Source: Streptomyces brasiliensis
Lineage (GTDB): Bacteria > Actinomycetota > Actinomycetes > Streptomycetales > Streptomycetaceae
NCBI RefSeq assembly: GCF_014647875.1
Contig: NZ_BMQA01000011.1
Span: forward strand, 62,001 to 126,000
Length of the DNA: 64,000 nt
Direction: 5' to 3'
A program made the position numbers and the translations under genes. The stretch's first letter is position 1; every line of letters begins with the position of its first letter. Shown here one piece after another: positions 43,058 through 51,000 of the stretch. The notes under the pieces were generated by a model, which saw only the letters and a list, made by a program, of their open reading frames with translations, was not told the origin of the DNA and ran no database searches.

Positions 43058-44359
43058 ATGACCACTACGGGGGTAGACCACGCGACGGCCGTGAACGGGC
43101 CGTGGTGGTGGTCCAGGTGGCGCAGTGCCGTGCTCGACGCGAGTCTCGCGCTGGTGTCCGCGGTGGAGTGCGGCGCGGAGGGGATCCCGTTCGCGCGGGA
43201 CGCGGGGATTCCGGTGTCGGCGGGGATCGTGTTCGGTCTGCTGGCCGGTTCCGTGCTGTTGCTGCGCCGTAAGTGGCCGATCGCGGTCGTCCTGGTCGCG
43301 ATCGCGATCACTCCGGCCCAGATGGGCTTCCTGATGGGCATCGTCGGCCTGTACACGCTCGCCGCCGCCGAGCTGCCGCGCCGGGTCATCGGAGCGCTGG
43401 CCGGGATGTCGCTCGTCGGCACGATGATCGTGACCTTCGTGCGGGTCCGGCAGGACATGGCCCGGGGTGATCTGACCCTCGGCGACTGGTTCGTGCCCTT
43501 CGCCTCCATCACCACGTCGCTCGGCCTGACCGCTCCCCCTGTTCTTCTCGGGTTGTACGTGGGTGCCCGGCGCCGGCTGATGGAGAGTCTGCGCGAGCGG
43601 GCCGACAGTCTCGAGCGGGAGTTGCAGCTGCTCGCCGAGCGGGCGGAGGAGCGGGCGGAGTGGGCGCGCAACGAGGAGCGGACGCGGATCGCGCGGGAGA
43701 TGCACGACGTGGTTGCGCACCGGGTGAGCCTGATGGTGGTGCACGCCGCCGCGTTGCAGGCGGTGGCGCGCAAGGACCCCGAGAAGGCCGTGAAGAACGC
43801 GGTGCTGGTCGGTGACATGGGGCGGCAGGCGCTGACCGAGTTGCGGGAGATGCTCGGCGTGCTGCGGTCGGGGGAGGGTGCGGACCGGCGTGAGGCGTCG
43901 GTGCCGCTGGCCGCCGTGGGAGCGGCCGCCGCGGCCGCGGCCTCGCGGGCGGCCGAGGAGGAGGGGCCGTGTCTGTCCGAGCTGGATGAGCTGATCGGGC
44001 AGTCGGCCGCCACTGGGATGGTGGTGGATCTGTCGGTGGAGGGGGAGACGCGGTCGTACGCGGCCGAGATCGAGCAGACCACGTACCGCGTCGTCCAGGA
44101 GGCGCTGACGAACGTGCACAAGCATGCGGGGGGTGCCAAGACGCACGTGCGGCTCGCGCACCGGGTGTCGGAGATCGCGATGCAGGTGGAGAACGAGCCG
44201 CCGCCGGAGCCCGCGTCGGCGTACGCCGCACGGTTGCCGTCCGGTGGCAACGGTCTGCTCGGGATGCGGGAGCGGGTCGTGGCGCTGGGCGGCGTCTTCG
44301 TGTCGGGGCCGACGGATGCGGGGGGTTTTCGGGTGTCGGCGGTGATTCCGGCGGTGTGA
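43058..44359 (+). CDS. Sensor histidine kinase (HisKA_3/NarX-like), orphan
   Basis: 433 residues. Membrane part with about five helices (AGIVFGLLAGSVLLLRR, WPIAVVLVAIAITPAQMGFL, VIGALAGMSLVGTMIVTFV, LTAPPVLLGLYVGARR). Coiled coil, then the phosphoacceptor His216 in IAREMHDVVAHRVSLMVVHA. ATPase N-box VVQEALTNVHKHAGGAK and G-box LPSGGNGLLGMRERVVALGG. This kinase type pairs with LuxR/NarL regulators, yet none is adjacent; the nearest ones are at 22540 and 29466. ATG at 43058. Divergent from the LAGLIDADG-like gene and convergent with the SUKH-3 gene. Confidence 0.92.
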   Translation: MTTTGVDHATAVNGPWWWSRWRSAVLDASLALVSAVECGAEGIPFARDAGIPVSAGIVFGLLAGSVLLLRRKWPIAVVLVAIAITPAQMGFLMGIVGLYTLAAAELPRRVIGALAGMSLVGTMIVTFVRVRQDMARGDLTLGDWFVPFASITTSLGLTAPPVLLGLYVGARRRLMESLRERADSLERELQLLAERAEERAEWARNEERTRIAREMHDVVAHRVSLMVVHAAALQAVARKDPEKAVKNAVLVGDMGRQALTELREMLGVLRSGEGADRREASVPLAAVGAAAAAAASRAAEEEGPCLSELDELIGQSAATGMVVDLSVEGETRSYAAEIEQTTYRVVQEALTNVHKHAGGAKTHVRLAHRVSEIAMQVENEPPPEPASAYAARLPSGGNGLLGMRERVVALGGVFVSGPTDAGGFRVSAVIPAV

Positions 44360-44415: not shown

Positions 44416-44910
44416 TCAGCCTGCCGTCAGTCGTACCGGCTCTATGCCCGCGACCAGTGCCGAGAGGGCGTGGTCGATGTCGGGGCCCAGGTACCAGTCG
44501 CCGGTGTGGTCGAGGGTGTAGACGCGGCCCTCGGTGTCGATGGCGAGCAGCGAGCGGGTGTCGGTCTCCTCGCCGAGGGGGCAGACCGCGGTGTCGAGGG
44601 CGCGGCCGAGGTCGCCGAGGGTGCGGGCGAGGTGGAGGCCGTGGAGGGGGTCGAGGTGGAGGGCGGCCGGGGCGATCTGGCGGCCGGGTCCGGCGGGCGC
44701 GATGTGCAGGCCGCCGAACTCGGCCCAGGCCTCGACGGCGGCGGGGAAGACGGCGTGCCGGTGTCCGGCGGGCGAGGTGTGGTCGCGCAGGGTGTCGGCC
44801 CAGAACTCTGCCTGTTTTATGTCCCAGCGCCCGGGTTGCCAGCCGGCGGCGCGCAGGGCGGCGTCGACGGGCACGGGAAAGCGTGTGGTCGAAGTGCGGT
44901 CGGCGTGCAT
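44416..44910 (-). CDS. SUKH-3 family immunity-type protein
   Basis: 164 residues. The SUKH-3 pattern is clear: VDAALRAAGWQPGRWDI, AEFWADTL, HAVFPAAVEAWAEFGGLHI, a C-terminal LAIDTEGRVYTLDHTGDWYL and GPDIDHALSALVAGIEPV. SUKH proteins are the usual antidotes of nuclease and deaminase toxins in polymorphic toxin systems. It lies 79 bases downstream of a YwqJ-like deaminase gene on the same strand, the toxin-then-immunity order. Whether it neutralises that deaminase is inferred. No signal peptide or membrane segment. Confidence 0.82.
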   Translation of the reverse strand: MHADRTSTTRFPVPVDAALRAAGWQPGRWDIKQAEFWADTLRDHTSPAGHRHAVFPAAVEAWAEFGGLHIAPAGPGRQIAPAALHLDPLHGLHLARTLGDLGRALDTAVCPLGEETDTRSLLAIDTEGRVYTLDHTGDWYLGPDIDHALSALVAGIEPVRLTAG

Positions 44911-44989: not shown

Positions 44990-45523
44990 TCAGTCGTCGG
45001 GCGTGGTGGGGTCGACGACGCGGACGCCGAAGTGGGCGCTGAGCGCGGCGCAGGCGCGGCAGGGCGCGGCGAAGCTGCCGTGCAGCGGGTCGCCGTCCTC
45101 GCGTATGCGGCGGGTGGTGAGCTTGGCCTGCTTGAGGACCTTGCGGGCCTCGCCGTTGGTCATGGGTTTGCGCGAGGCACGTTTGCTGCGGGTTGCGTCG
45201 GCGGCGGTGAGGTGGCGCGAGATGAGGATGGTCTCGGCGCAGCGGCCGGTGAAGCGGTCGCGCTGGGCGCTCGTGAGGGTGTCGAGGAAGTCCTGCACGA
45301 GGGGGTGGAGCGGCGGCGGGTGGTCGCCGCGGGCGGCGGTGCCGGTGAGGGTGGCACCGCGGACGGAGAGCGCGGCGGCCACGGTGGGCAGGATGCCGTC
45401 GCGGCGGTGGAGGAGGGCCGGCGGGTGGGGTGTCTCGGCGTGGCTCCAGCCGACGCGGGGGTCGCCGGAGGAGCCGTCTCTAGGGTCCGTATGCGGTCCC
45501 GTCTGCGTCGCTTTCATGGTCAT
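44990..45523 (-). CDS. YwqJ-like nucleic-acid deaminase (toxin-type)
   Basis: 177 residues. The zinc deaminase signature is complete: Cys95-Ala-Glu97 (RFTGRCAETILISRHL) and Pro154-Cys155-x-x-Cys158 (SFAAPCRACAAL). ALSVRGATLTGTAARGD at ~50-67 is the usual N-terminal strand of the YwqJ group. Such domains are best known as C-terminal warheads of secreted toxins; here the protein is short, has no secretion leader or PAAR/Rhs/LXG part, and is followed by a SUKH-3 gene. Three in-frame ATGs lie at 45526, 45523 and 45517 after GGGAGGGG; the middle one has the best spacing. The target nucleic acid is unknown. Confidence 0.78.
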   Translation of the reverse strand: MTMKATQTGPHTDPRDGSSGDPRVGWSHAETPHPPALLHRRDGILPTVAAALSVRGATLTGTAARGDHPPPLHPLVQDFLDTLTSAQRDRFTGRCAETILISRHLTAADATRSKRASRKPMTNGEARKVLKQAKLTTRRIREDGDPLHGSFAAPCRACAALSAHFGVRVVDPTTPDD

Positions 45524-45676
45524 CATCCCCTCCCGGGTGTCGCCCCGAAGAACTCAGAGTGCCAAATGCCGTGGCTGGTGCGGAAGCTGGGGCGGCGCGA
45601 CACGCCAGGGTTTGGGCAGGCAGTCACGGTGGGGTGACGGCAGGTCACGGTAGCGGAGGCCCCGCGACCGGTGCCC

Positions 45677-45706: not shown

Positions 45707-45830
45707 GTCGGCACCGTGATGCGCGCGGTCAACGCGTCGGTGACGTTGGAGAGACAGTCGAATACGGGGCGTACCGCACCATTGGCGGCGTGGTTTCGTC
45801 TCGTACAGAGTGCCGCAGGGGGCAACCGCC

Positions 45831-46829
45831 ATGACGACAGGTCGGCTCGGGCAACAAGCCGCGCCGCCGAACGCGGCCTACGCCGGGCAGGTCGTGCACT
45901 TCCCGGATCCGGTCCGGGCGGCACGTCACCCGAGAGGGGTACGTGTCGACGAGCGCGGGTATCCCGACTTCTCGCCCTATGCGCGTGCGGCGGCGGAGAT
46001 CGCCGATCCGCCGGAGGGCTTCGGTGTCGACGAGCTGCGGCTGACGGACTACGTGTCGGCGAACGCGGCGATGTCGGGGGCGGGGCACGAGTTGTGGGAC
46101 ACGGTGCCGTCGGTGGCGACGCCGCACGGCTGGACGTGGCATCACGTCGTGGGGTCGCGGCGTCTCGAGCTGGTTCCGGTCGAGGTGAAGGCGCTGCTGC
46201 GGCATCACGGCGGCGTGGCGACGGCGCGTGTCGACCAGGGCAAGCGGGGCACGCGGCCGTTGCAGGAGACGCGTCCGGCGCACTTCGGTCTGCCGAAGTC
46301 GGGTGTGGCGGTGACGGAACAGCAGGCTCTGGGCGTCGAGGAGGATCTGGGCTACCGGCTGCCGGGCGCGTACCGCTCCTTCCTGAAGGCGGCGGGCGGC
46401 TGCGCGCCGGTCGGTACGGCGCTGGACGCTCAGTTGGGGCTGCTGATCGACCAGCCGTTCTTCACGGTGCGTGACGAGGCGGCCGTCAACGATCTCGTGT
46501 ACGTGAACAAGTGCCTGCGCGACCATCTGACCAAGGACTACCTGGGTGTTGCCTTCGTGCAGGGCGGTCTGCTCGCGGTGAAGGTGAAGGGCGAGCGGCT
46601 GGGTTCGGTGTGGTTCTGTGCGTACGACGACGTGCGGGACGTGGATCCGTCGTGGTCGCCGGCCGAGCGTGTGGAGCGGTTGCTGCTGCCGTGCGGTGAG
46701 GACTTCGACACGTTCCTGTCGCGGCTCGCGGGCAGCCCGCCGGAGCTGGAGACGGTGGCGAACCTGATGGTGGACGGCGGCTTCGCGCGTGCGGTGCCGG
46801 TGTCGTCGGCCGCGGCTGCGGGGGAGTGA
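45831..46829 (+). CDS. WHH-type HNH/Endo VII nuclease domain fused to SUKH (SMI1/KNR4) domain
   Basis: 332 residues, no signal peptide. N-terminal half: GYPDFSPYARAAAEI, then LTDYVSANAAM and the nuclease core GWTWHHVVGSRRLELVPVEV with W103-H104-H105 and the distal H125-H126-G-G, matching the WHH group (conserved WHH, LVP and HxGG). Residues ~152-300 are a SUKH-1 domain (VEEDLGYRLPGAYRSFLKAA, GG..., LLLPCGEDFDTFLSRLAG). Toxin-type nuclease and immunity-type domain in one chain is unusual. ATG at 45831 with AGGGGG upstream. Six bases separate its stop from the next start, so the two genes are one operon. Confidence 0.82.
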   Translation: MTTGRLGQQAAPPNAAYAGQVVHFPDPVRAARHPRGVRVDERGYPDFSPYARAAAEIADPPEGFGVDELRLTDYVSANAAMSGAGHELWDTVPSVATPHGWTWHHVVGSRRLELVPVEVKALLRHHGGVATARVDQGKRGTRPLQETRPAHFGLPKSGVAVTEQQALGVEEDLGYRLPGAYRSFLKAAGGCAPVGTALDAQLGLLIDQPFFTVRDEAAVNDLVYVNKCLRDHLTKDYLGVAFVQGGLLAVKVKGERLGSVWFCAYDDVRDVDPSWSPAERVERLLLPCGEDFDTFLSRLAGSPPELETVANLMVDGGFARAVPVSSAAAAGE

Positions 46830-46835
46830 TTTTCG

Positions 46836-49800
46836 ATGGTGACGTTCGCACAGGCGCAGGAGCGCGCCGAGGAGTGGATCAACGGGGACGTGCCGGCGTA
46901 CCAGCATCGCGAGGTGCGGGTGCGGGAGTTCGGGCTCGGGTTCGTGGTGTGGGGCGAGGACCGTGCGGAGGGGCCGCGGTCGGACGCGGGCGCGCAACGG
47001 TTGGTGATCGCCCGGGACAGCGGCGAGGCGACGCTGTGGCCTGCGCTGCCGGTGGGCGAGGTGATCCGCCGGTACGAGGAGGAGTACGGCCGTGAGGAGG
47101 CCGCCGCGGACGCGCCGCCGGCTCCGGCCGCGCGGGTGGATCTGAACCAGACGTCGTTCCTGCTGAGTCCGCCGGAGTGGTTGCAGGAGGCAGCGGACAA
47201 ACTGGGGATTCCGGACCGGCGGTCGTCGGATGGTGGCGAACTGCCTCAGACGCAGGCCGGGGTGCCGGTGCAGGGGGGTGCGCCTGGTGGGACGGCGGCT
47301 GCGGCTGCCGGTCCTGGTGCGGGTCCGGGTGCTGCGCCGGGGGTGCCGGGCGGTGGCAGCGGTGGGTCGTGGCCCGCTGCCGGTGAGAGTGGTGCCGGCG
47401 CGGGTGCGGGTGCGGGGTCCTTCGGCGGGGGGCACGGTTCGGTCGGTGCGCCAGGTGCGCCTGCCGGGGCGACGCCCTGGGCCGGGACGGACACGAACGC
47501 CGATTCCGGTGACGACCGTTCGGTGCCGCTGCCCGCGACGGTGTTCGCGCCGCCGTTGAGCGACGTCGACGACAACACGCCGCCGCCGGCCGCGCCGGAC
47601 GCGAAGACGGCGCTGATGTCGGGGGGCAGCCAACTGCCGCCGACGGCTGTTTCCCCGGCGCTCGACGACCGGAACGTGCCCGGGGCGCAGGGCTTTGCGC
47701 CGGGAGCGCCGGGTTCTTCGCATGCTCCTGGTGGTGCGCCGGGGGCGCTTGGAACCGTGGGTGTGCCAGAGGCACCGGGTGGGCCGGGGGCGCCTGGTGC
47801 GCCGTCGTACGGCCACCAGCAGGGACCGGCGGTTCCCGGCACGCCTCCCTACCCGCAGCAGGCCGGCACCCCGGGCACGCCGCCCCCGCCGTCGCCGGGG
47901 AGCATGCCTCCGCCTCCGCCGGGTGCGCCGTCGTACGGCTATCCGCCGGGTCCCGGTGCTCCGGGCACGCCCCCTCCGGGTGCCCCGGGGTACGGCTATC
48001 CGCAGGGGCCGGGCGGTGCGCCCGACGGGCCCCAGCCTCCGGCCGGTCCGGGTGCGCCCGGGCGGCCGCTCCCGCCCGACGCCAGTGACATCGCGGACGC
48101 CGCGACGAGCAAGGCGGCTCCGCCGCGCCGGGCTCGCGGGGGTGCGGGTGCGCCGCCTCCGCCGCCGGGTGCTCCGGGGGCGCCCGGTGCGCGGCCGGGG
48201 GGCACGCCTCCGCCTGCCCCGCCCGGGGTGCCGGGTGCGCCGGCGGGTGGTTATGTGCCGACGCGGCTCGTGTCGTCGCTCGGTCCGGACGGGCCGGAGG
48301 GTGTCGGCGGTCCGGGCGCGGGCGCGGGCGCGCAGATCCCGCCGGGCGCTCCCAACCCGCCCTCCGCGCCGGGCACTCCGGGCGGCACGCCCCCCGGCGG
48401 TGTGCATCACGCGGCCACGGTGCTGGCCGACCCCAGTCAGTTGGGCCCGGGAACGGGAGGCGGCGCGCAGATCCCGCCGGGCGCCCCGGGCATTCCTGGC
48501 GCGCCCGGCGCGCAGGGTGCTCCGAGCGCCCCGGGTGTACCGACTCCGCCCGGCGCCCCGGGAGTTCCGGGCGCCCCCGGCGTACCGCAGACTCCGGGCG
48601 CCCCGGGCGTGCCCAACGCGCCTGGCGCGCAAGGCTCTTCAGGGGGCGCGCACGGTGCCGTGCACCACGCGGAGACCGTGCTGGCCGCGCCTCCGGTGGG
48701 CGGCCCCGGCGTACCCCCGCCGCCGCAAGGCCCGGGCGTACCCGGAGCGCCGGGCGCCCCCGGAATGCCGCCGGGCGCCCCGCAGCCGATGCCGTCCGGT
48801 GCGATGCCGCCCCCCGGTCGGCCGCCCGTGCCCGGCCTGCCCGTGCCCGGCCTGCCCGTGCCCGGCCTGCCCGTGCCCGGCCTGCCCGTGCCCGGCCTGC
48901 CGGTGCCGGGGCAGCCGTTGCCCGGTCAGCAGCCCGCGTACGGCTACCCGCAGCAGGGGCAGCCGACGGTCGGTCCGGGGTATCAGGCCGTGCTGCGCTA
49001 CCGCGCGCAGGACGGGTCCGAGCAGCAGCTGATCCGGCGTTCGGCGCCGGGCACGCCGCACCCGGAGTGGCAGATCTTCCACGAACTGCGCGCGATGAAC
49101 GTGCCGCCGGACCAGGTGCTGGAGCTGCACACCGAGCTGGAGTCGTGTGAACTGCCCGGTGCCTACTGCGCGCGGATGATCCGGGAGCAGTGGCCGCAGG
49201 CGCGGATCACGAGCATCGCGCCGTACGGCACGGACCACGCGAGCCGGCAGCAGGGGATGCAGCAACTGCTGGTGCACCAGGGTGAGTTGCATCAGGTGGC
49301 GGACGGTCCCGCACGTCCCGCGCCGGTGCGCGCGCCGTTGCCGCAGGTGCAGCCCGCGCCGCCGATCCCGCCGGAGGGGATCGCGCACGAACTGGCGGCG
49401 GCGTTCGGGCCGGGCGTGTTCCGGTTCGAGCAGGCGGCGGTGTCGCGGCAGGGCGTGCCGCCGGTCGTGGCGCACACGCTGGTCGCGGCCGGACTGCCAC
49501 TGGACATGAGCCCGTTCTTCTGGGCGCAGGCCCAGCCGGGCCGTCCGGTGCCGACCCTGGCGGAACTGGCGCAGGAGCGCGGGGTGCAGCCCGCCGCCGA
49601 CGCGGGTTCGTACCTGGTGATGGGCACCGACTTCGGCAAGGCGATCTGCGTGCAGTACGGCACGGCGAACATCGTCGCCGTGCCGGTGGAGGCGGGGCCG
49701 GGCGGTGCGCCCGTGCCGCCGCAGTTCGTGAACACCGGGCTGCCGGAGTTCGCGCGCTCCCTGGCGCTGCTCGGCCGCATGTGGCGGCTGCGCTTCGGTC

Positions 49801-49934
49801 TGAACCAGGAGCAGGCGGGCCGCTGGACCGTCGACTTCCAGGCCCAGTTGGCCTCCCTGGACCCGGCGGCGCTGGGTTCGGCGGAAAGCTGGTGGTCGGT
49901 GCTGCTGGAGCAGATGTGGGACGGGCTGCTGTAG
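46836..49934 (+). CDS. Composite protein: Imm35-like, Pro/Gly-rich linker, deaminase-like and SUKH-4 domains
   Basis: 1032 residues. Residues 1-88 resemble Imm35/YrhB immunity domains (FAQAQERAEEWING..., RLVIARDSGEATLWPALPVG). About 140-715 is collagen-like Pro/Gly/Ala sequence, including five exact P-V-P-G-L repeats. Residues ~716-790 (YQAVLRYRAQDGSEQQLIRR, then H765-T-E767, Cys771 and Y-Cys778) look like a compact HxE...C deaminase. Residues ~849-1020 (IAHELAAAFGPGVFRFEQ, TLVAAGLPLDMSPFFWAQ, ALLGRMWRLRFG) are a SUKH-4 domain. No leader or membrane helix. Translated just after the WHH-SUKH gene. The domain calls are by eye; the deaminase one is the least sure. Confidence 0.75.
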   Translation: MVTFAQAQERAEEWINGDVPAYQHREVRVREFGLGFVVWGEDRAEGPRSDAGAQRLVIARDSGEATLWPALPVGEVIRRYEEEYGREEAAADAPPAPAARVDLNQTSFLLSPPEWLQEAADKLGIPDRRSSDGGELPQTQAGVPVQGGAPGGTAAAAAGPGAGPGAAPGVPGGGSGGSWPAAGESGAGAGAGAGSFGGGHGSVGAPGAPAGATPWAGTDTNADSGDDRSVPLPATVFAPPLSDVDDNTPPPAAPDAKTALMSGGSQLPPTAVSPALDDRNVPGAQGFAPGAPGSSHAPGGAPGALGTVGVPEAPGGPGAPGAPSYGHQQGPAVPGTPPYPQQAGTPGTPPPPSPGSMPPPPPGAPSYGYPPGPGAPGTPPPGAPGYGYPQGPGGAPDGPQPPAGPGAPGRPLPPDASDIADAATSKAAPPRRARGGAGAPPPPPGAPGAPGARPGGTPPPAPPGVPGAPAGGYVPTRLVSSLGPDGPEGVGGPGAGAGAQIPPGAPNPPSAPGTPGGTPPGGVHHAATVLADPSQLGPGTGGGAQIPPGAPGIPGAPGAQGAPSAPGVPTPPGAPGVPGAPGVPQTPGAPGVPNAPGAQGSSGGAHGAVHHAETVLAAPPVGGPGVPPPPQGPGVPGAPGAPGMPPGAPQPMPSGAMPPPGRPPVPGLPVPGLPVPGLPVPGLPVPGLPVPGQPLPGQQPAYGYPQQGQPTVGPGYQAVLRYRAQDGSEQQLIRRSAPGTPHPEWQIFHELRAMNVPPDQVLELHTELESCELPGAYCARMIREQWPQARITSIAPYGTDHASRQQGMQQLLVHQGELHQVADGPARPAPVRAPLPQVQPAPPIPPEGIAHELAAAFGPGVFRFEQAAVSRQGVPPVVAHTLVAAGLPLDMSPFFWAQAQPGRPVPTLAELAQERGVQPAADAGSYLVMGTDFGKAICVQYGTANIVAVPVEAGPGGAPVPPQFVNTGLPEFARSLALLGRMWRLRFGLNQEQAGRWTVDFQAQLASLDPAALGSAESWWSVLLEQMWDGLL
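48825..48899 (+). repeat. Five exact 15-base tandem repeats
   Basis: CCCGTGCCCGGCCTG five times without change, followed by a degenerate copy, encoding P-V-P-G-L. Base-level identity in a high-GC coding region marks recent slippage expansion; copy number may vary between strains. Confidence 0.88.
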
Positions 49935-49954
49935 CCCGATTGCCGTGAGCCATG

Positions 49955-49986
49955 GGGCCGGCCCGGTCGTGCGACCGGGCCGGCCC
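49955..49986 (+). terminator. Strong terminator after the composite gene
   Basis: GGGCCGGCCCGGTCG and CGACCGGGCCGGCCC, 15 bases each with a 2-base gap, followed by TTTC. It ends the WHH/SUKH operon. Confidence 0.88.
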
Positions 49987-50112
49987 TTTCGCGTGCGTCC
50001 GGCCGGCCGTGTCATGCCTGCGGAGTATCACGTTATGAGCCCTTACGCCCGATCCATCAAGATGTGCGCGAAATCATCATTTCGTGTGTGTCCGGCGGAG
50101 AGGGGTTCCAGG

Positions 50113-51000
50113 GTGAGCAGCGCGTCGAAGTCGCCGCACGGCTTCGTGACCGTCCGGGGGCGCGGCTACCGCCCCGAGCACGTCGACGCCCGTGCGACGG
50201 CCCTCTGTCAGGCACGTGACGCCGCGTGGGAGAGAGCCGCGCGGCTGACCGTGCTCGCCAAGGACATGGAGGCGGAGGTGGAACGGCTGCGCGGGACGGT
50301 CGCGCGGCTCGCGCCGCAGACGTACGAGACGCTCGGGGAGCGCGCACGGTGCATCTTCCAGCTCGGGGTGGAAGAAGCGGCGGCCGTACGGGAGTACGCG
50401 CGGCGTGAGGCACAGGAGCAGGCCGCAGAGGCGGAGGCGCGCGCCCTGGGCGTGCGCCGGACGGCGCAGGAAGAGGCGGACGCGCTCCGAGCGGACGCGG
50501 AGGAACGCGCCCGCCAGCGGTTGCTCGCGGCGCGCGCCGAGGCGGACGACGTACGGATCGGCGCCCGCCGCGAGGTGAAGGAGTCGCGCAGCGAGGCCCT
50601 CGCCGCGCTGCGCGAGATGCGGCAGCGGACCTCCGGGATGCTCGCCGAGCACGCCAGGGAGCACGCCGAACGGTGGGGCGTGGTCGAGCGCGAGGAGGAC
50701 GAGCGGCTGGCCGCGTTCGAGGCACGGCACGCGGAGGCCGTCGTCCGCGCCGAGGCCGCGGTGGCCGAGGCGAAGCGTGTGCTCGCCGAGTCGGAGGAGT
50801 CGGCCTGGCGCCGCCAGGAGGAGGCACGCGCGCGTGCGGCCGAGATCCTCGCCGAGGCACGGTTGCGTGAGGACCGGATCGCCCGCGAGACGGAACAGGT
50901 GCTGCGCGACCACGGGGAGACCTGGGACGACGTGCAGGCACAGATGGACCACGTACGCAGCAGTCTGACGACCCTGGCGGGCCAGGCGGCACTGGAGTGA
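50113..51000 (+). CDS. DivIVA-like coiled-coil protein (annotated elsewhere as cellulose-binding protein)
   Basis: 295 residues. The N-terminus FVTVRGRGYRPEHVDARATA resembles the DivIVA/GpsB membrane-recognition motif (GYxxxxVD). The rest, from about residue 30 to 285, is Ala/Glu/Arg-rich and predicted as continuous coiled coil (EEADALRADAEERARQRLLA and similar). Such proteins in Streptomyces act as cytoskeletal scaffolds at the hyphal tip or bind large polymers; the older cellulose-binding label is by similarity to SCO proteins of this shape. GTG at 50113 with GAGAGGGG upstream. Precise role not known. Confidence 0.8.
   Translation: MSSASKSPHGFVTVRGRGYRPEHVDARATALCQARDAAWERAARLTVLAKDMEAEVERLRGTVARLAPQTYETLGERARCIFQLGVEEAAAVREYARREAQEQAAEAEARALGVRRTAQEEADALRADAEERARQRLLAARAEADDVRIGARREVKESRSEALAALREMRQRTSGMLAEHAREHAERWGVVEREEDERLAAFEARHAEAVVRAEAAVAEAKRVLAESEESAWRRQEEARARAAEILAEARLREDRIARETEQVLRDHGETWDDVQAQMDHVRSSLTTLAGQAALE

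What the first reader, a model, noticed from the sequence alone, without database searches (positions are those of the whole stretch)
46836..49934. Immunity-like, deaminase-like and SUKH-4 domains joined by a ~575-residue collagen-like linker in one protein
An N-terminal Imm35-like domain and a C-terminal SUKH-4 domain bracket a compact HxE...C...C deaminase-like region (His765, Glu767, Cys771, Cys778). Having both an enzyme of toxin type and two immunity-type folds on one chain, with a flexible Pro/Gly spacer, suggests a self-inhibited enzyme whose SUKH part folds back on the active site and is released by a signal. Cys spacing is shorter than in classical deaminases, so it may be inactive.
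Basis: partly seen in the sequence, partly recalled or inferred. Interest (0 to 1): 0.7.

Follow-up and report, generated by a model that had tools for sequence, protein, structure and literature searches.

The report
Caged base-editing enzyme in Streptomyces core
Nearly every Streptomyces examined carries, at the same chromosomal place, a long protein joining a toxin-type base-changing enzyme to the kind of domain that normally neutralises it, through a stretchy linker dotted with repeated threonine motifs; it looks like a weapon turned into a standing cell component, though what it does is untested.

Summary
The ORF is real. Pfam finds an XOO_2897-type deaminase (residues 713-812) and SUKH-4 (850-1026). 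The correct residues are intact in 130 of 130 core loci, so an active enzyme is likelier than a dead one. Imm35 membership of the N-terminus failed each test. The linker is collagen-like in composition only; it carries Thr-centred motifs (T[MV][LF]A: 283 in 106 linkers, 0.7 expected by shuffling, none Ser-centred), also in a second genus.

The larger finding is the locus: a YwqJ deaminase/SUKH-3 pair, a WHH nuclease fused to SUKH-1, and this protein lie together in 65 of 65 full-length named loci and in a second Streptomycetaceae genus, with intact active sites and vertical-looking divergence. That is unusual for "polymorphic toxin" domains. Contrast: 14 of 15 non-core deaminase-SUKH-4 relatives examined (a set biased to weak scores) lost both cysteines.

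Best reading: a domesticated, cis-inhibited nucleic-acid deaminase. Activity, trigger, substrate and role are inferred; SUKH contact with the active site could not be modelled.

The parts
46836..49934 (+). Main protein (P0001), 1032 aa, with stop codon
   Evidence: protein-level conservation
46836..47198 (+). N-terminal domain, residues 1-121, family not identified; predicted a-b-b-b-b-a plus a conserved TSFLLxPPEWLQ segment
   Evidence: 42 invariant positions among 37 of 41 proteins; model mean pLDDT 67; no Pfam or convincing fold match
47211..48971 (+). Pro/Gly/Ala-rich linker, residues 126-712; length differs between orthologues (308-716 between anchors in the 34 of 41 proteins where both anchors were found)
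47538..47549 (+). Thr motif TVFA (T235) in SVPLPATVFAPPL
47607..47618 (+). Thr motif TALM (T258)
48105..48116 (+). Thr motif TSKA (T424) in DIADAATSKA
48417..48428 (+). Thr motif TVLA (T528) in VHHAATVLA
48675..48686 (+). Thr motif TVLA (T614) in VHHAETVLA
48972..49271 (+). XOO_2897-type deaminase domain, residues 713-812 (PF14440)
   Evidence: E 2.1e-36; fold
49059..49067 (+). Catalytic H742-P-E744
49146..49169 (+). Zinc-ligand pair C771-x6-C778
49383..49913 (+). SUKH-4 domain, residues 850-1026 (PF14435)
   Evidence: E 1.5e-44
49954..49987 (+). 15-bp hairpin just after the stop codon, possible transcript end (no T-run, so not called by the terminator scan)
   Evidence: 66-nt stretch, -43 kcal/mol, z -4.3; one search found none by consensus
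45810..46829 (+). WHH (HNH/EndoVII) nuclease fused to SUKH-1; ends 6 bases before P0001 starts, likely same transcript
   Evidence: W-H-H (46137-46145) in 111 of 111 copies found in 120 loci
44990..45526 (-). YwqJ-type deaminase (PF14431), CxE and PCxxC intact
   Evidence: C96, E98, C156, C159 in 107 of 107 copies found in 120 loci
44416..44910 (-). SUKH-3 protein (PF14433), downstream of the YwqJ gene
49945..51000 (+). Conserved neighbour, coiled-coil-like protein without a family above cut-off; longest ORF given, conservation begins near residue 58
43058..44359 (+). Conserved neighbour, sensor histidine kinase (HisKA_3)

Best explanation
P0001 is a cytoplasmic, domesticated relative of interbacterial deaminase toxins: a zinc-dependent nucleic-acid deaminase (H742/E744/C771/C778) that is made together with its own inhibitor, the SUKH-4 domain on the same chain. 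[Shown: domains, intact motif, near-universal place in the genus, purifying selection. Inferred: everything that follows.] SUKH-4 covers or sequesters the active site in the resting cell. The N-terminal domain and the long linker, which offers several Thr-centred docking or phosphorylation sites, read a signal and relieve the block. The deaminase then alters DNA or RNA bases inside the same cell, alongside the WHH nuclease (caged by SUKH-1) encoded just upstream and the YwqJ deaminase (held by SUKH-3) encoded divergently. Likely uses are abortive response to phage or other nucleic-acid stress, or regulated hyphal death during development.
For: Domains above Pfam cut-offs. Cytidine-deaminase fold: the first 31 rows of the VIA list are deaminase-superfamily entries, Z 5.4-7.0; DddB 9k3e at Z 6.5 over 82 residues, rmsd 3.5. 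Catalytic set intact in 130 of 130 core loci, whereas 14 of 15 distinct non-core deaminase-SUKH-4 ORFs fetched lost both Cys (biased set). dN/dS against the window 0.04 in the deaminase and 0.13 in SUKH-4, medians over 77 of 80 loci. PF14440 in 115 of 121 genus genomes and 14 of 14 of a second genus. Locus genes together in 65 of 65 and 39 of 40 loci, and in the second genus. Distances track a nearby ABC ATPase gene, r 0.45-0.71. SUKH-4 genes beside WXG100-deaminase genes on two plasmids. No strongly hydrophobic segment in P0001 (best 19-residue mean 1.32; histidine kinase control 2.24). Thr motifs: 283 against 0.7 shuffled, 0 Ser-centred.
Against: No activity, substrate, inhibition or phenotype was tested. 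The SUKH part was not modelled reliably. Foldseek alone gave no match at E<=0.001, and Z below 8 is middling. PADLOC has no match to P0001 or five neighbours. Five of 111 genus loci with both ends found have the N-terminus and deaminase in different frames, and 2 of 10 second-genus loci are broken, so the one-chain form may not be universal, or these are assembly errors in GC-rich repeats. With a wider motif, Ser-centred copies are also in excess (104 against 45 shuffled; Thr 534 against 33), so strict Thr choice holds for the core motif only.
Confidence: 0.4

Rival explanations
1. Housekeeping enzyme: a constitutive RNA- or nucleotide-modifying deaminase of Streptomycetaceae in which SUKH-4 and the N-terminal domain are scaffolds or substrate-delivery parts, not an inhibitor; no toxicity.
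For: Near-universal in the genus, divergence tracking a neighbouring gene, very low dN/dS; no export segment.
Against: Company of two further toxin-type enzymes with SUKH domains; relatives with the same two domains lie in plasmid islands with WXG100-deaminase genes.
Confidence: 0.25
2. Immunity or decoy protein: SUKH-4 protects against incoming WXG100-XOO_2897 deaminase toxins of competitors, and the tethered deaminase only keeps SUKH-4 folded or occupied until displaced.
For: WXG100-deaminase genes exist in the genus next to separate SUKH-4 genes (two plasmids); a paralogous deaminase-SUKH-4 group has lost the catalytic residues (14 of 15 distinct ORFs fetched).
Against: In the core protein the active site is intact in 130 of 130 loci and the deaminase evolves more slowly than SUKH-4 (dN/dS 0.04 against 0.13), the reverse of what a decoy predicts.
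Confidence: 0.2
3. Exported polymorphic toxin carrying its immunity domain in cis, the linker acting as a stalk.
For: Toxin-type enzyme and long P/G-rich region.
Against: No WXG or other trafficking domain by Pfam, no hydrophobic segment; the enzyme is not C-terminal; not polymorphic but near-universal.
Confidence: 0.08
4. Inactive, degenerate enzyme with an unrelated structural role.
For: Cys spacing C-x6-C differs from the C-x2-C of four long relatives.
Against: C-x6-C is also seen in the SUKH4-deaminase relatives and C-x5-C in most relatives without SUKH-4 in the frame; all four residues invariant in the core.
Confidence: 0.07

Closest known systems
XOO_2897-like deaminase, Pfam PF14440 (listed among SUKH-associated deaminases in PMC3482391, passages read)
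   Same: Domain, HxE + CxnC motif, association with SUKH
   Different: Here not at the C-terminus, no trafficking domain found, near-universal and syntenic rather than polymorphic
SUKH-4 immunity protein, Pfam PF14435
   Same: Nearly full-length domain match (profile 3-179 of 179)
   Different: In cis with the enzyme; fusions of SUKH to toxins 'on occasions' (example Tox-GHH) are noted in PMC3482391 (passages read)
Plasmid-borne SUKH4-deaminase fusions beside WXG100-deaminase genes (Streptomyces sp. NA03103 and NBC_01174)
   Same: Same two domains on one chain, catalytic residues intact
   Different: Opposite order, 275-285 aa, no linker or N-terminal domain, 33-35% identical in the deaminase, accessory
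DddA / DddB double-stranded DNA deaminases (PDB 6u08, 9k3e)
   Same: Deaminase fold (Z 5.1 over 79 and Z 6.5 over 82 residues)
   Different: 6u08's title names a complex with a separate immunity protein; not found by sequence
Encapsulin family-2 cargo enzymes with disordered regions carrying a conserved motif (PMC8346489, passages read)
   Same: Enzyme with a disordered G/P/A-rich region holding a short conserved motif, common in actinobacteria
   Different: Motif there is GPTGLGT; here T[MV][LF]A; the genome was not searched for encapsulins

Membership tests
XOO_2897-like deaminase (PF14440) | Profile match above the curated cut-off | tested here: met
   124.5 bits against 27
XOO_2897-like deaminase (PF14440) | HxE and paired-Cys zinc motif in alignable positions | tested here: met
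   H742, E744, C771, C778; 130 of 130 core loci; relatives
XOO_2897-like deaminase (PF14440) | Cytidine-deaminase fold | tested here: met
   b-b-a-b-a-b-a model, ten-residue pLDDT means 59-86 over its first 80 residues; first 31 VIA rows deaminase superfamily, Z 5.4-7.0 over 70-86 residues; Z below 8 alone would be weak, Foldseek best E 9e-3
XOO_2897-like deaminase (PF14440) | Deaminase activity on nucleic acid or nucleotide | not testable with these tools
   none
SUKH-4 immunity protein (PF14435) | Profile match above the curated cut-off | tested here: met
   152.6 bits against 25.5
SUKH-4 immunity protein (PF14435) | Binds and neutralises a toxin | not testable with these tools
   SUKH part of the model under pLDDT 50
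Imm35 (PF15567) | Profile match to the N-terminal domain | tested here: not met
   no hit at E<=10; none here in whole-genome search at E<=1; hhalign probability 0.2% against 7 Imm35 members
Collagen-like repeat | Long uninterrupted Gly-X-Y triplets | tested here: not met
   longest run 5, shuffles mean 4.1 (p 0.25), although G..G spacing is in excess (46 against 31, p 0.001) and phmmer links the linker to collagen-type chains by composition
Polymorphic toxin system | Trafficking domain at the N-terminus and toxin domain at the C-terminus | tested here: not met
   no such domain by Pfam, SUKH-4 is C-terminal; no hydrophobic segment
Polymorphic toxin system | Variable, accessory distribution | tested here: not met
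   PF14440 in 115 of 121 and 14 of 14 genomes, locus together in 65 of 65
Known anti-phage defence system (PADLOC-DB 2.0.0) | Match to a defence protein model | tested here: not met
   0 families for 6 proteins at E<=0.01

The most novel reading that the evidence does not exclude
A family-wide, vertically inherited self-directed device: three enzymes that attack nucleic acids (YwqJ deaminase, WHH nuclease, XOO_2897 deaminase), each paired with a SUKH domain, of which P0001 is gated through threonine-centred motifs in a disordered linker, for example by Ser/Thr kinases and FHA-type readers, so that phosphorylation uncages a DNA/RNA deaminase in the cell's own hyphae.
Probability: 0.13. Interest if true: 0.85.

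Novelty: new variant of a known kind. Interest (0 to 1): 0.6.

Why it matters
Toxin-type deaminases and nucleases are normally accessory weapons. Here three of them sit with their SUKH partners at one place in nearly all Streptomyces examined, with active sites under purifying selection. If the deaminase is active and caged in cis, Streptomyces has a standing enzyme that can rewrite its own DNA or RNA, and the Thr motifs give a direct handle on how it is released. It would also be a new source of deaminases for base editing.

Tried and rejected
Rejected: catalytic His765 (Y or F in 31 of 36 motif-bearing non-core rows); 'Cys spacing too short'; Imm35 membership; regular collagen; known defence system; phage origin (no tblastn match at E<=1e-5 among 50,697 phage records).

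Led nowhere: AlphaFold2 of 713-1032 (mean pLDDT 45.5) gave no usable SUKH-4 part, so contact with the active site is untested; the N-terminal model found no fold (Foldseek none at E<=0.001; best VIA Z 4.6 over 57 residues); PDB sequence searches gave only the linker's match to collagen-type chains (8zxl E 1.1e-57) and weak rows (best E 0.19); NCBIfam had no model for P0001; the consensus promoter/terminator scan found nothing; a 70-aa linker piece with motifs matched only itself below E 0.1 in the genome, and the HHA[AED]T[MV]LA coding pattern, one mismatch allowed, occurs twice, both in P0001. Encapsulin-cargo idea: the motif differs.

Literature: ten searches. In the listings and passages seen I found no description of this locus; only PMC3482391 and PMC8346489 were opened, in passages. 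Two papers that I recall as most relevant (NAR 2011, on SUKH and on deaminases) are not held, so absence from print is not claimed.

Full report
What is there. The window holds a 1032-aa ORF at 46836-49934 +. Pfam places an XOO_2897-like deaminase at 713-812 (124.5 bits, cut-off 27) and SUKH-4 at 850-1026 (152.6 bits, cut-off 25.5). The N-terminal 121 residues are a conserved but unassigned domain; the Imm35 label failed a Pfam scan to E 10, a whole-genome PF15567 search to E 1 and a profile comparison with seven Imm35 members (probability 0.2%). Between lie 587 residues, 65% Pro, Gly or Ala.

The active site. Three things place it elsewhere. First, in the AlphaFold2 model (shallow alignment, mean pLDDT 45.5, but ten-residue means of 59-86 over the first 80 residues) H742 and E744 lie at the start of the helix of residues 743-754, H765-E767 at the end of the strand 761-766, and C771/C778 around the start of the helix 774-785. 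Second, 26 residues lie between E744 and C771, against three between E767 and C771. Third, outside the core set the rows that bear the motif (36 rows, same-place duplicates included) hold Y or F in the H765 column in 31, while H742 is kept in 35 (one D, alignment uncertain) and E744, C771 and C778 in all 36 (rows printed). In four long relatives (L265-L268; not scanned for other domains) the Cys pair is C-x2-C; in most relatives without SUKH-4 in the frame, including the two tested to carry WXG100 (L181, L182), it is C-x5-C; here and in the SUKH-4 fusions it is C-x6-C. The model's first 85-90 residues match the cytidine-deaminase fold: the first 31 rows of the VIA list are deaminase-superfamily entries (Z 5.4-7.0), with DddB 9k3e at Z 6.5 and DddA 6u08 at Z 5.1. 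Foldseek alone gave no match at E<=0.001; its best rows, APOBEC3H, have E 9e-3.

Is it kept? H742, E744, H765, E767, C771 and C778 are identical in 40 of 40, 80 of 80 and 10 of 10 core loci. dN/dS against the window is 0.041 for the deaminase and 0.127 for SUKH-4 (medians over 77 of 80 loci). By contrast, of 15 distinct non-core ORFs with deaminase then SUKH-4, 14 have lost both Cys and 12 of these also the His; one (L269, 807-aa frame) is intact. That set was picked's list mostly for weak scores, so the rate of loss is biased upward; it shows only that loss is tolerated in a paralogous group and was not seen in the core protein.

The locus. Upstream by 6 bases is a WHH nuclease fused to SUKH-1 (45810-46829 +); divergent from it are a YwqJ deaminase (44990-45526 -) and SUKH-3 (44416-44910 -). 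Active-site residues are invariant: YwqJ C96, E98, C156, C159 in 107 of 107 copies and W-H-H in 111 of 111 copies found in 120 loci; the loci without a copy are L069 (YwqJ) and members of the 15 named loci that are cut short. In a second genus, nine of ten loci show the four SUKH-linked genes, L241 has damaged frames, and the coiled-coil gene was not detected in L235. A hairpin of 15 pairs follows P0001's stop, without a T-run.

Distribution. PF14440 is in 115 of 121 genus genomes, 114 at 120 bits or more; the other (G001) had only a 48-bit match. Of the six without, one (G008) also lacks WHH-SUKH-1; in the other five WHH-SUKH-1 is present and the contig ends 0.5-1.5 kb beyond it or, in G010, a 2.2-kb run of N spans the place. 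A second genus of the family has a match in 14 of 14. In a phylum-wide draw 10 of 296 matched: nine of this genus and one below the cut-off. In the order draw 188 of 197 matched; the third family had only weaker matches (best E 1.4e-27), in 8 of 14 genomes. Protein distances of the locus genes track those of a nearby ABC ATPase (Mantel r 0.45-0.71) and of WHH-SUKH-1 (r 0.64-0.78), p 0.001 each, 32 of 40 loci, as vertical descent would give; the yardstick is a neighbour, so joint transfer is not excluded.

The linker. Its length varies (308-716 residues between anchors in 34 of 41 proteins) and its longest unbroken G-x-x run is 5, as in shuffles, though G..G spacing is in excess (46 against 31, p 0.001), and phmmer ties it by composition to collagen-type chains. 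It carries recurring Thr motifs: HAx[TS][MVI]LA (82 of 106 genus linkers, 147 copies), DAx[TS]S[KR]A (81), P[AG][TS]V[FL]AP (68), [AE]x[TS]AL[MI] (66), [YF]VP[TS][QR]L[VI] (61); in the five families the central residue was Thr in every copy counted. The short form T[MV][LF]A occurs 283 times in 106 genus linkers (0.7 in shuffles; 96 of 106 have one) and 18 times in 7 second-genus linkers (0 in shuffles; 7 of 7); the Ser-centred form never occurs (1.1 expected in the genus), although Ser is commoner than Thr. With a wider motif Thr still leads (534 against 33) but Ser-centred copies are in excess too (104 against 45). Shuffles ignore kinship, so these are not independent events, but the second genus and the copy-number differences argue against mere inheritance. 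In this genome the HHA[AED]T[MV]LA coding pattern occurs only in P0001, and no other ORF of 100 aa or more in the window has two T[MV][LF]A. A preference for Thr recalls phosphothreonine readers (FHA) and bacterial Ser/Thr kinases; this is from general knowledge, not tested.

Relatives that explain it. Two Streptomyces plasmids carry islands with, in order, a SUKH4-deaminase fusion (reverse order), a WD40-like or unassigned gene, a WXG100-deaminase gene (a T7SS-type toxin, by general knowledge of WXG100) and a separate SUKH-4 gene. So SUKH-4 is paired with this deaminase in trans and in cis, which supports SUKH-4 as its inhibitor. Product names there include 'nucleic acid/nucleotide deaminase domain-containing protein' and 'SUKH-4 family immunity protein'. 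One genome (L246) has a deaminase pair of this kind beside the core locus.

Mechanism. I think P0001 is a deaminase caged in cis and released by a signal read through its N-terminus and linker, acting in the cell that makes it (overall 0.4). Shown: anatomy, intact motif, constraint, shared locus. Inferred: activity, substrate, caging, trigger, role. Rivals are a housekeeping modifying enzyme (0.25) and a decoy or immunity protein (0.2); the latter fits the motif-less paralogues better than the core protein.

Against this reading. No biochemical evidence exists here; PADLOC finds nothing; the SUKH-active-site contact could not be modelled; and 5 of 111 genus loci with both ends found (L035, L061, L062, L064, L178; L061 holds N) have the two ends in different frames, as do or are broken 2 of 10 second-genus loci (L237, L241).

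Known or new. The domains, and SUKH-toxin fusion as such, are known (PMC3482391, passages read). The three-enzyme locus and the Thr-motif linker were not described in what my ten literature searches showed, but two papers that I recall as most relevant were not available. I rate it a new variant of a known kind.

Noticed in passing
L251-L264 (loci), e.g. L260 ORF at 2177 -: A separate group of deaminase-SUKH-4 proteins in this genus (open frames of about 380-620 aa) in which both zinc Cys and usually the HxE His are lost (14 of 14 distinct ORFs): likely pseudo-enzymes.
   Followed up: partly
L181 5497-10549; L182 5467-10192: Plasmid islands pairing a SUKH4-deaminase fusion with a WD40-like or unassigned gene, a WXG100-deaminase gene and a SUKH-4 gene; PF14440 pairs a few kb apart recur in several genomes.
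   Followed up: partly
   Followed up: no
window 43058-44359 +: Sensor histidine kinase (HisKA_3) kept beside the locus in both genera (65 of 65, 38 of 40 and 10 of 10 loci); no response regulator among the neighbours scanned.
   Followed up: partly
G000:C8:242919-244031 - (loci L002, L004): A second SUKH-4 protein in this genome, with two SUKH-4 matches in one 391-aa frame.
   Followed up: no
   Followed up: no
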